This document shows positions 13,797-23,385 of a stretch of 64,000 nucleotides of DNA, one piece after another. The notes beneath the pieces were generated by a model, which saw nothing but the letters and a program-made list of their open reading frames with translations, did not search any database and was not told where the DNA came from. Origin of the DNA: an uncultured Clostridia bacterium (lineage in GTDB: Bacteria; Bacillota; Clostridia; Oscillospirales; Acutalibacteraceae); NCBI GenBank assembly GCA_944384925.1, contig CALWVF010000032.1:1-64000 (forward strand), written 5' to 3'. Position numbers and translations under genes: made by a program. Each line of letters begins with the position of its first letter. The stretch's first letter is position 1.

Positions 13797-14585
13797 ATGG
13801 GAAATCGTTTAAAATTACTAATCGCAGAAGATTGTGCAGAATTTGATCGAGAAAGTTGTGAGATATTTGAAAATTTAGGCTTTGAACCATTTTTTGCGCC
13901 AAAAGATGGATTTAGAGTTATGGAGTTAATAGAAGAAAAAACTCCAGATGTTGTAATTATGGATTTGTTTATGCCTAGAGTAGATGCAATAGGAGTGATA
14001 AAATCTATCACAAAAGATAATAAAGTTAAAACTCCTGCATTTATTATATTATCCAATTTTGACAGCCCTGTATTAGAGAAAGAAGTGATGAGTGCTGGAG
14101 CATCTTATTTTATTTTAAAACCATTTAATATAAAAGATTTAGCAGAAAGAGTGCTACAATTTTCTGCAAAGGGAAATAATATGCAAATTAGTAAAGTACA
14201 ATTTAATAATTCTCAGTCGTTAGCACGTGATGATATTGAGATAAAGATAACAGAAATACTACACCAAATAGGAGTGCCTGCACATATAAAAGGATATCAT
14301 TACTTAAGAGAATCTATAATGATGTCTGTTGAACATCCAGAAATAATAAATGCAATTACAAAGCAGCTTTATCCATCTGTAGCTAAAAGATTTTCAACAA
14401 CTTCTTCAAGGGTAGAACGAGCAATAAGACATGCTATTGAGGTAGCTTGGGATAGAGGAGATGTTGATATACTGAATTCTTATTTTGGCTATACAATTCA
14501 TAATGGTAGAGGAAAGCCGACTAATTCAGAATTTGTTGCTATGATAAGTGATAAACTTAGATTACAAATGAAGACAGCAAGTTAA
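13797..14585 (+). CDS. spo0A: Spo0A sporulation master regulator
   Basis: A 262-aa response regulator. The receiver domain has the acidic pocket (LIAEDC), the phospho-acceptor Asp56 in IMDLFMP, and the conserved Lys in ILKPF. The C-terminal Spo0A-specific DNA-binding domain is intact, including KGYHYLRESI, LYPSVAKRF, TSSRVERAIRHAIEVAW and the C-terminal SEFVAMISDKLRL. Phosphorylated Spo0A binds 0A boxes to start sporulation. A GGGGG site precedes the ATG. A TTGTCAAAAA sequence about 25 bases upstream only loosely resembles a 0A box, so autoregulation is not claimed. Confidence 0.97.
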   Translation: MGNRLKLLIAEDCAEFDRESCEIFENLGFEPFFAPKDGFRVMELIEEKTPDVVIMDLFMPRVDAIGVIKSITKDNKVKTPAFIILSNFDSPVLEKEVMSAGASYFILKPFNIKDLAERVLQFSAKGNNMQISKVQFNNSQSLARDDIEIKITEILHQIGVPAHIKGYHYLRESIMMSVEHPEIINAITKQLYPSVAKRFSTTSSRVERAIRHAIEVAWDRGDVDILNSYFGYTIHNGRGKPTNSEFVAMISDKLRLQMKTAS

Positions 14586-14720: not shown

Positions 14721-14752
14721 TATAATTAGCACTCAAAGTTAGTGAGTGCTAA
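14721..14752 (+). promoter_or_regulatory. groESL promoter -10 and CIRCE operator
   Basis: A perfect CIRCE element, TTAGCACTC, 9 bases, GAGTGCTAA (14726-14752), overlaps a TATAAT -10 box (14721-14726). CIRCE is bound by the HrcA repressor, so groESL should be induced by heat shock. hrcA is not in this window. Confidence 0.95.
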
Positions 14753-15074: not shown

Positions 15075-16739
<1,665 letters not shown>

Positions 16740-16768
16740 TCTTCATAATAGTTATTATATATTTAAGG

Positions 16769-16801
16769 AACCAACATCAAAAATGTGATGTTGGTTTTTT
16801 T
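16769..16801 (+). terminator. groESL terminator (inside repeat)
   Basis: Arms AACCAACATC and GATGTTGGTT followed by eight T. It is identical in the second leader copy at 17636-17668. Confidence 0.9.
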
Positions 16802-16953
16802 ATATGTTTGTACCAAAAATATGTTTAAATAAGAACTATGAAAAATCTTTGGCTAAGAAGGAAGGCAGAATAAATTAAAAATAATTAATATAAAGTAGTG
16901 AAAATGACGAAAACGACTTTAAAAATATAATTAATATTTATAACAAAATACTA

Positions 16954-16982
16954 TTGAAAATATTATTAAAAAATGATATAAT
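16954..16982 (+). promoter_or_regulatory. promoter of peptide cassette 1
   Basis: TTGAAA and TATAAT separated by 17 bases, 33 bases before the start codon. It is conserved in cassette 2. Confidence 0.8.
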
Positions 16983-17015
16983 AAATACATCGATAAAAGA
17001 AGAGGAGAGATAACA

Positions 17016-17195
17016 ATGATGTTGTCAATGGTAAATAAAATTTGGTGTGGAGTAAAAACATTAGTGTATACATGTTATGTAGGAGCAGGAATAGCAGCAG
17101 GATATTGTTTTGTGAAGGCCTTACCACAGTTGATTGATATGGGTGGAAAATTATTAACAGCGTTCGAAAAATTGGTAGATAGTTGTACAATATAA
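17016..17195 (+). CDS. small hydrophobic peptide A1
   Basis: A 59-residue peptide starting MMLSMVNKIWCGVKTLVY, with one hydrophobic segment (~residues 15-35) and an amphipathic tail (ALPQLIDMGGKLL). GAGGAGAG lies at ideal spacing and a promoter is just upstream, so it is expressed in all likelihood. It is related to peptide A2 at 17882, sharing MLS near the start, KxxWxGV, a VKxLPxLI motif and similar length, at roughly 40% identity. No signal-peptidase site, Cys pattern or double-Gly leader is evident. Candidates are a leaderless bacteriocin, a type I toxin-like membrane peptide, or a small membrane regulator; none is proven. Confidence 0.75.
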   Translation: MMLSMVNKIWCGVKTLVYTCYVGAGIAAGYCFVKALPQLIDMGGKLLTAFEKLVDSCTI

Positions 17196-17280
17196 TTAGT
17201 CAGAATATAATGTTTGGTATAATGTTGAGGATTAATAAGAAAATATAGTTATATAAAAATAGAATTGTGGGGTTGAGATT

Positions 17281-17535
17281 ATGATGTTATCAGTGATAAA
17301 AAATATGTTGAAATTTGTAGGAAAGACTGTGGTATATACATATGCAACAATTGGAATAATAGTCACAGCAGTGATAGGAGCTGGAGTTTTAATGAAATCA
17401 AACGAATTAAATTCTGGTGTAGATTGTGTATGTGATGTAACTGGAAAAGTGTCAAGTGTTGCGCAAAGCGTAATACCAGTCGTAAAAGATGGAATACCAG
17501 CCATACAAGATTTAATAACAAGCATAATGAAATAA
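17281..17535 (+). CDS. small hydrophobic peptide B1
   Basis: An 84-residue peptide starting MMLSVIKNMLKFVGKTVVYTY, with a Gly/Ala/Val-rich membrane segment (residues ~20-38) and a polar C-terminal half (SVIPVVKDGIPAIQDL). Its N-terminus closely resembles B2 at 18126 (FVGxTxVYTY shared) and more distantly A1 and A2. It lies 85 bases after A1 and is followed by a terminator, so A1-B1 is probably one transcript. The ribosome site is GGGGTTGAG. Function unknown. Confidence 0.75.
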   Translation: MMLSVIKNMLKFVGKTVVYTYATIGIIVTAVIGAGVLMKSNELNSGVDCVCDVTGKVSSVAQSVIPVVKDGIPAIQDLITSIMK

Positions 17536-17540
17536 TTTAT

Positions 17541-17577
17541 AAAGCGTAACAATATTTTTAAGTGTTGCGCTTTTTTT
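17541..17577 (+). terminator. terminator of peptide cassette 1
   Basis: Arms AAGCGTAACA and TGTTGCGCTT (one wobble) followed by seven T. A related hairpin ends cassette 2. Confidence 0.85.
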
Positions 17578-17611
17578 AATTATTAGTATGTATTATTATT
17601 TCTTTAATTTT

Positions 17612-17881
17612 ATAATAGTTATTATATATTTAAGGAACCAACATCAAAAATGTGATGTTGGTTTTTTTATATGTTTGTACCAAAAATATGTTTAAATAAG
17701 AACTATGAAAAACCTTTGGCTAAGAAGGAAGGCAGAATAAATTAGAAATAATTAATATAAAGTAGTGAAAATGACGAAAATAACCTTAAAATATAATTAA
17801 TATTTATAATAAAATACTATTGAAAATATTATTAAAGAATAATATAATAAACACATCAATAAAAGTAAAGGAGAGATAATA
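17612..17881 (+). repeat. peptide-cassette leader, copy 2
   Basis: Second copy of the leader at 16745-17015, with only scattered base changes and one single-base gap. It contains the same terminator (17636-17668) and a promoter, TTGAAA (17820-17825) and TATAAT (17843-17848) with 17-base spacing. Confidence 0.9.
17820..17848 (+). promoter_or_regulatory. promoter of peptide cassette 2
   Basis: TTGAAA and TATAAT with 17-base spacing, conserved from cassette 1. It drives the A2-B2 pair. Confidence 0.8.
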
Positions 17882-18055
17882 ATGTTATTATCAATAGCAA
17901 AAAAATTTTGGCATGGAGTACATGCATTCTATGTAACATTAGGAGTAGCAACAACATGCTTATTGGTAAAGAGTTTACCTAAATTAATTGAGATTGGTAA
18001 ACCTTTGTACGAAGCTTTAAAAAGTTATATCGGCATGTTATTAAGTAATGCGTAA
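17882..18055 (+). CDS. small hydrophobic peptide A2
   Basis: A 57-residue peptide starting MLLSIAKKFWHGVHAFYV, a diverged copy of A1. Both have a short basic N-terminus, one hydrophobic segment and a VKSLPKLIEIG motif matching VKALPQLIDMG of A1. It has an AAGGAGAG ribosome site. Its coding sequence has drifted far more than the leader in front of it, which is nearly unchanged. Confidence 0.75.
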   Translation: MLLSIAKKFWHGVHAFYVTLGVATTCLLVKSLPKLIEIGKPLYEALKSYIGMLLSNA

Positions 18056-18125
18056 TGCTTAATTAATGTTGCTAATTAATAAAAAATTACATTTATATTA
18101 AAAATAAAATTATGGAGTGAAAATT

Positions 18126-18344
18126 ATGATATTATCAGTAGTGAAAAGTGTGTTCAAATTTGTAGGAAATACTATCGTGTATACATATACAGCTATAGGA
18201 ATGGCAATTACAGCAGCAGTAGCAGCATCAGCAATAATTGCACCAGACAAATTGAAGGCTGTTGTAATTTGTATAACTGGTCTAATAAGGATGGACAATT
18301 TAGCAAATCAAGTAAGTAATTTCTTTGGAAATATTTTTGGTTAA
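18126..18344 (+). CDS. small hydrophobic peptide B2
   Basis: A 72-residue peptide starting MILSVVKSVFKFVGNTIVYTY, with an Ala-rich membrane segment (AITAAVAASAII) and a short polar tail. The first ~30 residues match B1 strongly and the tail does not. The ATG at 18126 follows TGGAGTG at good spacing; an in-frame GTG at 18117 is part of that site. It is the last gene of cassette 2, with a ~215-base gap before the terminator in which I see nothing. Confidence 0.75.
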   Translation: MILSVVKSVFKFVGNTIVYTYTAIGMAITAAVAASAIIAPDKLKAVVICITGLIRMDNLANQVSNFFGNIFG

Positions 18345-18559
18345 TTATTCTTTTTACTATTTCTTGTTGTTTTGATGATTTGATATATGTATATTATGCT
18401 TATATATAAGCTAATGTTATTATTGTTAATAATATCGATTCTATGACTTCAGATAATAATATGTAATGTTTCAAATTTTAAGCAATTTTACTTAGAAAAG
18501 CAAATAGACTTGTTAAAAATTCTTAGTTTAATGAAAGTTATACTTTTCCTATAATTTAG

Positions 18560-18594
18560 AGAGCGCAACATTATTTTTTAATGTTGCGCTTTTA
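18560..18594 (+). terminator. terminator of peptide cassette 2
   Basis: Arms AGCGCAACAT and ATGTTGCGCT followed by T, closely similar to the terminator of cassette 1. It may also serve the convergent glycosylase gene. Confidence 0.8.
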
Positions 18595-22290: not shown

Positions 22291-23385
22291 ATGAGAAAAA
22301 ATAAGAAAATATTATCGAAGGTTATTGGCTTGGGTTTCACATTTGCTTTTACAGCCTGCTGCTTAGTAAATAACTCGCAAAAGGCTTTAGCAGAAGAAAA
22401 CAACGCAACACCTATTGAAAATTGGAGCCAACTTGTAATGTTTTGCAACAATAAATCTGCTAATGATGGATATTTAACTAATGATATTAGTGTTGATATA
22501 AGCGACTTTACACAAATTAAAACTTTGAATAAAAATCTTGATGGAGCAGGAAAGAAAATAATAGTAGATAATTATGACAGTAGCACTACCTTATTTGAAA
22601 GCATCCAGGAAGGAATAGTAGCTAAAAATTTAGATGTTAATTTACCTATATGTACTCATAATTATGGCAGAATAGAAAATTGTGTAAACAATGGAAATAT
22701 TACAAAAACGGTACTTTATAATGGATATCAAGATATGGGAGGAATTGCTGTAAGCAATGAAGGTAATGGTGTTATAATTGGATGTGCAAATAACGGAGAT
22801 ATAGATATAGGAGAAGTTAATAGCACAGAGTATCGTTATGTAGTTGGAGGAATTGTAGGATTTAATAATGGAGCTTTAGTTGAGGATTGTGTAAATAATG
22901 GGATGATTTCTTGCTTAGATTATGCTACAGGTGGAATAGTTGGTGAAAATTACCCTAGTGGCAGAGTTGTTAATTGTGTAAATACAGCTAATATTACAGG
23001 TGATTATCGTGTTGGTGGCATTGTTGGATTTTGTAAAGATGCAAACATATCTGAGTCTATAAATTATGGATATATTAGAGGAACCGGAGACTATATTGGT
23101 GGAATAGTAGGATGGCTTGAAGGTGGTGCTATATTAAATAGTATAAATATTGGAGATATTGAAGGATTAGGTGAATTGGAAGATGGTTTAAGTTTAGGTG
23201 TAGGAGACATATTTGGATACAATCAAGGCGGAGAAGTTACCAATACATCTACCACAAATAGCCTTTTAGGTTCTATATATGGAGAGAATACTTGGATTAG
23301 TATAGTAATAATTATATTAAGTATAGCTGTGATTGTAGGAGTAGTTTATTTAATTGGAAGAAGTAGAAAAAGGACTAATGCTTAA
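22291..23385 (+). CDS. surface protein with GLUG-type repeats
   Basis: A 364-aa exported protein. It has a signal peptide (MRKNKK, hydrophobic core, KALA) and a repeat region from ~110 to 310 in which units of about 25 residues carry GGIVG and NCVNNG-like blocks. This is the GLUG-type pattern that builds a beta-helix or solenoid. At the C-terminus a membrane span (ISIVIIILSIAVIVGVV) is followed by the basic tail RSRKRTNA, as in wall-anchored proteins, but no LPxTG motif is visible. It is therefore probably a membrane-anchored surface protein. The two membrane genes downstream, one a PrsW-like protease, may process or display it; that is inference. Confidence 0.75.
   Translation: MRKNKKILSKVIGLGFTFAFTACCLVNNSQKALAEENNATPIENWSQLVMFCNNKSANDGYLTNDISVDISDFTQIKTLNKNLDGAGKKIIVDNYDSSTTLFESIQEGIVAKNLDVNLPICTHNYGRIENCVNNGNITKTVLYNGYQDMGGIAVSNEGNGVIIGCANNGDIDIGEVNSTEYRYVVGGIVGFNNGALVEDCVNNGMISCLDYATGGIVGENYPSGRVVNCVNTANITGDYRVGGIVGFCKDANISESINYGYIRGTGDYIGGIVGWLEGGAILNSINIGDIEGLGELEDGLSLGVGDIFGYNQGGEVTNTSTTNSLLGSIYGENTWISIVIIILSIAVIVGVVYLIGRSRKRTNA

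What the first reader, a model, noticed from the sequence alone, without database searches (positions are those of the whole stretch)
16745..18594. Tandem two-peptide cassettes: a possible undescribed small-peptide system
Two consecutive units each contain terminator, sigma-A promoter, peptide A (59 or 57 aa), peptide B (84 or 72 aa) and a second terminator. All four peptides begin with an M-L-S-type start followed by a basic, aromatic segment and one hydrophobic stretch; A1 pairs with A2 and B1 with B2. Each gene has a good ribosome site. No transporter, modification enzyme or immunity gene is adjacent. Leaderless two-peptide bacteriocins, type I toxin-like membrane peptides, or a new class of small membrane regulators are all possible. 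I could place them in no known family.
Basis: partly seen in the sequence, partly recalled or inferred. Interest (0 to 1): 0.75.

Follow-up and report, generated by a model that had tools for sequence, protein, structure and literature searches.

The report
Duplicated operon of orphan membrane peptides
A small gut-type clostridial genome carries, just behind its groEL chaperone gene, two tandem copies of a two-gene operon for short membrane-binding peptides that look genuinely translated but have no relative in any genome searched, so they are probably a species-level invention whose function is still unknown.

Summary
Two tandem units (about 866 bp apart) each carry a copy of the groEL terminator, an 11/12 sigma-A promoter, peptide A (59/57 aa), peptide B (84/72 aa) and a terminator. 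The four ORFs look coding: codon use matches the genome's genes in frame, the A motif VK[AS]LP[QK]LI[DE][MI]G shows purifying selection (pN 0.19, pS 0.71), and all have ribosome sites. New here: (1) A and B are paralogous over their first 30 residues. (2) Upstream DNA is 95% identical between units while the genes are about 75%, so the left part was copied or homogenised recently. (3) A third copy of the promoter (81% over 132 nt) lies behind dnaJ and drives an unrelated secreted protein, whose 73%-identical paralog lacks it. No homolog turned up in about 400 family and 400 order genomes, 84,980 species genomes (a pattern scan), or viral, phage and plasmid collections. The peptides fit membrane insertion, N-terminus inside, with amphipathic tails. 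Bacteriocin-like or PSM-like membrane activity is my leading guess (0.35), small membrane regulators a close second. Leaderless-bacteriocin and type I toxin membership are not met. Species-restricted small membrane proteins are common, so interest is modest.

The parts
16765..16800 (+). groEL terminator, left edge of unit 1
   Evidence: 15-pair stem and T-run, repeated at 17632-17667
16878..17011 (+). promoter and 5' leader block of unit 1, shared also with a third locus (G000 C7:48317-48448) behind dnaJ
   Evidence: 81% identity over 132 nt to C7; alignment
16954..16982 (+). sigma-A promoter of unit 1 (TTGAAA-17-TATAAT, extended -10)
   Evidence: 11/12 consensus
17009..17026 (+). RNA hairpin with the A1 start codon in its loop (equivalent in unit 2: 17875-17892)
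   Evidence: z about -2.9 and -3.3; one double compensatory change and one G-U to A-U change between the two copies
17016..17195 (+). peptide A1, 59 aa
17281..17535 (+). peptide B1, 84 aa
17541..17578 (+). terminator of unit 1
   Evidence: hairpin -12.1 kcal/mol followed by T7; repeated at unit 2, 80% over 65 nt
17598..17881 (+). copied upstream block of unit 2 (groEL-type terminator, promoter, leader)
   Evidence: 95% identical to 16741-17016
17820..17848 (+). sigma-A promoter of unit 2
   Evidence: 11/12 consensus
17882..18055 (+). peptide A2, 57 aa
18126..18344 (+). peptide B2, 72 aa
18559..18593 (+). terminator of unit 2
   Evidence: hairpin -21.1 kcal/mol followed by a T-run

Best explanation
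A bicistronic operon for two related, membrane-targeted small peptides was tandemly duplicated behind groESL. Shown: both units have their own strong sigma-A promoter, ribosome sites and terminators; all four ORFs look coding; all four peptides share an N-terminal segment with no acidic residue, followed by a hydrophobic segment. Inferred: the peptides are made constitutively at a high level, insert with the N-terminus inside, and present amphipathic C-terminal helices at or beyond the outer face. There, A and B of a unit would act together as membrane-active peptides, working like (not belonging to) multi-peptide leaderless bacteriocins or phenol-soluble modulins. The fast-changing tails would set target or partner specificity.
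For: Anatomy of both units. Coding signal and local purifying selection in the A motif, residues 33-43, pN 0.19 against pS 0.71, confidence interval excluding zero. A and B homologous over residues 1-30, hhalign E 3e-4, 45% identity. N-terminal flanks with K/R 2-3 and D/E 0 in all four; amphipathic tails beyond shuffles in A1, A2 and B1 (2-10 of 1000). Net charge +2 to +4. Tails diverge quickly: 12% (A) and 25% (B) aa identity. The same promoter block also drives a protein with a signal peptide, a hint of an envelope or extracellular programme.
Against: No exporter, PH-domain protein or immunity gene beside the cassettes; PH-domain genes exist elsewhere in the genome. B2's tail is not significantly amphipathic (76/1000). 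The conserved tail motif in A suggests a specific partner rather than generic lysis. The A hydrophobic stretches are weak (1.45). Structure models are low confidence (pLDDT 55 and 69). Overall pN is about equal to pS, which neither proves diversifying selection nor excludes relaxed constraint. Nothing here measures activity.
Confidence: 0.35

Rival explanations
1. Small single-pass membrane proteins that regulate or assemble with a resident membrane complex (A and B as a heteromer), with no toxic or antimicrobial role.
For: Single hydrophobic segment with N-in charge bias; conserved juxtamembrane motif VK[AS]LP[QK]LI[DE][MI]G under purifying selection in A; no export or immunity genes. Lineage-restricted small membrane proteins are common (PMC11364881).
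Against: No conserved partner gene in synteny: the groEL flank in related genomes carries neither the peptides nor a shared neighbour. Two diverged copies with fast-changing tails are less expected for a fixed partner.
Confidence: 0.3
2. Sec-exported peptides: the N-terminus is a signal peptide, with cleavage near VK[AS]-LP in A, releasing 24-45 residue amphipathic peptides.
For: Basic n-region, hydrophobic core and a small residue before LP in both A peptides, read directly from the sequence; promoter shared with a signal-peptide protein.
Against: No signal-peptide predictor was available; the lysine at -2 and leucine-proline after the site are not ideal; B has no clear equivalent site.
Confidence: 0.15
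3. A bacteriocin with its cognate small immunity peptide: one of A or B is toxic, the other protects, and the duplicated units have different specificities.
For: Two-gene units duplicated as a whole, with both members diverging.
Against: A and B share their N-terminal half, unusual for toxin and immunity pairs; no exporter adjacent.
Confidence: 0.08
4. Type I toxin-antitoxin modules: A (and B) are membrane toxins silenced by a cis-antisense RNA, as in yonT/yoyJ-SR6.
For: Size and hydrophobicity; tandem repeats as in the Ldr repeats (PMC4147584); two toxins on one mRNA are known in yonT/yoyJ (PMC5848175).
Against: No minus-strand promoter of 9/12 or better anywhere in unit 1, and those in unit 2 are not above shuffled background; predicted 5' leader of only about 26 nt with the SD free; no Rfam match.
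Confidence: 0.07
5. Not functional: decaying or chance ORFs behind a duplicated promoter.
For: No homologs outside the genome; overall pN about equal to pS.
Against: Frames stay open by chance in only 1-4% of simulations each; genome-like codon use in frame; local purifying selection; ribosome site at every start.
Confidence: 0.05

Closest known systems
Multi-peptide leaderless bacteriocins (aureocin A70, enterocin L50/DD14, garvicin KS)
   Same: Several small related cationic peptides without an obvious leader, encoded side by side
   Different: Longer (57-84 aa), one hydrophobic segment plus tail, net charge only +2 to +4, no exporter, PH-domain or immunity gene beside them, no sequence match
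Phenol-soluble modulins of staphylococci
   Same: Small leaderless amphipathic peptides in tandem copies, leader-free start (from my own knowledge)
   Different: No Pfam match, including to the PSM-beta family; longer, with a distinct hydrophobic segment; two paralogous genes per operon
yonT/yoyJ-SR6 and other type I toxin-antitoxin loci of Firmicutes
   Same: Two small membrane peptides on one mRNA (PMC5848175); tandem repeats occur in type I loci such as Ldr (PMC4147584)
   Different: No antisense promoter in unit 1, no long structured leader, not in a mobile element
Species-restricted small membrane proteins of the global microbiome catalogue
   Same: Under 100 aa, membrane-type, taxonomically restricted and unannotated; 39.7% of small-protein families are species-specific and 15.3% transmembrane or secreted (PMC11364881)
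   Different: Here four paralogs in two duplicated operons with a re-used promoter

Membership tests
Leaderless bacteriocin | Small cationic peptide active without leader or modification | not testable with these tools
   Net charge +2 to +4; activity cannot be computed
Leaderless bacteriocin | Export or immunity genes (ABC transporter, PH-domain protein) in the same cluster; usual but not universal (PMC11580447) | tested here: not met
   Neighbours are groEL, uracil-DNA glycosylase and a PF06541 protein beyond it; bPH_2 genes lie on another contig, C18
Leaderless bacteriocin | Sequence match to a described subgroup | tested here: not met
   No Pfam or NCBIfam family; no solved-structure relative
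Type I toxin-antitoxin | Antisense RNA gene overlapping the toxin mRNA | tested here: not met
   No minus-strand sigma-A promoter in unit 1; those in unit 2 are at background level. A promoter of another type would be missed
Type I toxin-antitoxin | Small hydrophobic membrane peptide | tested here: inconclusive
   B fits; the A stretch is weak, 1.45 over 19 residues
Type I toxin-antitoxin | Toxic when overproduced | not testable with these tools
   Needs an expression assay in a laboratory strain
Phenol-soluble modulin | Match to PSM profiles | tested here: not met
   No Pfam hit
Phage holin or other phage small protein | Phage family match or phage context | tested here: not met
   PHROGs best E 0.01, partial, to an unknown 209-position family; no B1 match and only an E 4 match for A1 in phages; housekeeping neighbourhood
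Lineage-restricted small membrane protein | Translated, under about 100 aa, membrane-type, found in one genus or species | tested here: met
   Coding signal; absent from all other genomes searched. Translation itself not measured

The most novel reading that the evidence does not exclude
A new class of co-expressed, paralogous two-peptide membrane-active system, diversified by tandem duplication with a homogenised promoter and co-regulated, through a shared promoter block, with a secreted protein at the dnaJ locus.
Probability: 0.15. Interest if true: 0.6.

Novelty: new member of a known kind. Interest (0 to 1): 0.33.

Why it matters
If the peptides act outside the cell, they would show how a bacterium with a 1.46 Mb genome spends coding space on self-made, fast-changing peptide weapons or signals without a dedicated export cluster. 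If they are regulators, they add to the many unannotated membrane peptides in gut bacteria. The re-use of one promoter block for peptides and for a secreted protein is a testable small regulon.

Tried and rejected
Family libraries (Pfam, NCBIfam, PHROGs, PADLOC) gave nothing significant. Profile searches in 98 relatives, 398 family and 394 order genomes gave only hits near the chance level inside longer or broken frames; the ones I opened were not small M-x-L-S peptides. Pattern scans of genome contigs and viral contigs gave nothing. Synteny behind groEL in 20 relatives showed no similar peptide pair. AlphaFold models were too poor for a fold search, so none was run. Rfam gave only one chance hit below its gathering score, outside the cassettes. 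I considered diversifying selection on the peptides; synonymous sites and the A-B spacer are diverged too, so the contrast with the upstream region points to copying or conversion of that region instead. Weak promoter-like hits at other contigs were AT-rich noise.

Full report
What is there. Behind groEL (15108-16739), which follows a CIRCE element (TTAGCACTC-N9-GAGTGCTAA at 14726-14752) and groES, lie two tandem units. Each begins with a copy of the groEL terminator, then an 11/12 sigma-A promoter, then peptide A, peptide B and a second terminator. Beyond unit 2 come a uracil-DNA glycosylase gene on the other strand and a PF06541 membrane protein.

Are the genes real? The codon score in frame lies in the range of the genome's genes for all four, and the other two sense frames are negative. 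Under unconstrained substitution at the observed divergence each frame would remain open in 1-4% of simulations. A mechanical census of small ORFs with a ribosome site outside large ORFs, over about 100 kb, returned mostly known genes (groES, ribosomal proteins, regulators) and these four. In A, residues 33-43 (VK[AS]LP[QK]LI[DE][MI]G) have pN 0.19 and pS 0.71, with a confidence interval that excludes zero; the first 25 residues of B trend the same way (0.17 against 0.30). Elsewhere pN is about equal to pS. Translation is therefore likely but not measured.

Relations among the four. A1 and A2 share 36%, B1 and B2 35%. A and B are also related to each other over residues 1-30 (hhalign E 3e-4, 45% identity; pairwise scores reached by 15-90 of 2000 shuffles). 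The likeliest history is an A/B duplication first, then duplication of the whole operon.

The two units are unevenly alike. Identity falls from left to right: 98% behind the groEL stop, 96% up to the -35, 89% to the start codon, 75% in A, 79% in the A-B spacer, 73% in B and 70% at the end. The upstream region differs significantly from the spacer (p 5e-5) and from synonymous sites (p 2e-7, an approximate count). Because spacer and synonymous sites are as diverged as the genes, the simplest reading is recent copying or conversion of the left part of the units, not positive selection on the peptides.

A third promoter. In the whole genome the upstream block has one further strong match, 81% over 132 nt, on contig 7. 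It ends at the start of a 218-aa protein with an evident signal peptide, directly behind dnaJ. That protein has no Pfam match. Its closest paralog, 73% identical, lies on the window's own contig at 69807-70466 and has a different upstream region. So the promoter block has been re-used with unrelated coding sequence. Both sites lie directly behind heat-shock operons (groESL and dnaK-dnaJ). I have no test of whether that is chance.

Leader structure. In both A genes the start codon sits in the loop of a 7-bp hairpin just after the free Shine-Dalgarno sequence (-6.2 and -4.5 kcal/mol, z -2.9 and -3.3). Between the copies one pair changes on both sides (C-G to U-A) and one from U-G to U-A. With two related copies this is only suggestive. 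The B genes lack it.

Distribution. The genome (1.46 Mb, 40 contigs) is the only one held of its genus. Profile searches in 98 relatives, 398 family and 394 order genomes found no relative; the hits at E 0.001-0.01 match the number expected for that many genomes and lie inside longer or interrupted frames. Pattern scans of 84,980 species genomes and of viral contigs, and tblastn against phages and plasmids, found none. The pattern scans find close relatives only. Neighbouring lineages by Spo0A are unnamed Clostridia and Ruminococcus bins, many from ruminant gut.

How it may work. All four peptides have 2-3 lysines and no acidic residue before the hydrophobic stretch, which predicts the N-terminus inside (positive-inside rule from established knowledge). 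Tails are amphipathic beyond shuffles in A1, A2 and B1, not in B2. Models are all-helical and of low confidence. I commit, at 0.35, to membrane-active peptide pairs working like multi-peptide leaderless bacteriocins or PSMs. Small membrane regulators (0.3) are close behind. Membership in leaderless bacteriocins is not met on cluster content (PMC6131525 and PMC11580447) and in type I toxin-antitoxin loci not on antisense promoter (PMC4147584 and PMC5848175).

Novelty. Species-specific small-protein families make up 39.7% of families in a global catalogue, and 15.3% of families are predicted transmembrane or secreted (PMC11364881). An orphan membrane peptide is thus an ordinary kind of discovery; the duplicated two-peptide operon and the re-used promoter make this one somewhat more interesting.

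Noticed in passing
G000 C7:47659-48448 (L022, L030): A secreted orphan protein directly behind dnaJ uses the peptide-cassette promoter; the genome holds three further paralogs (C32:69807, C22:6367, C11:52927).
   Followed up: partly
L031:6767-7630: A second Spo0A-like response regulator lies next to the paralog of the secreted protein, besides the Spo0A-like gene at window 13797-14585.
   Followed up: no
window 17009-17026 and 17875-17892: Start codons of A1 and A2 lie in the loop of a conserved 7-bp AU-rich hairpin; possible translation control or thermosensor.
   Followed up: partly
window 18345-18558: About 210 nt of non-coding DNA between the B2 stop and its terminator, absent from unit 1.
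   Followed up: no
window 22291-23385: Secreted GLUG-repeat protein with a C-terminal membrane anchor.
   Followed up: no
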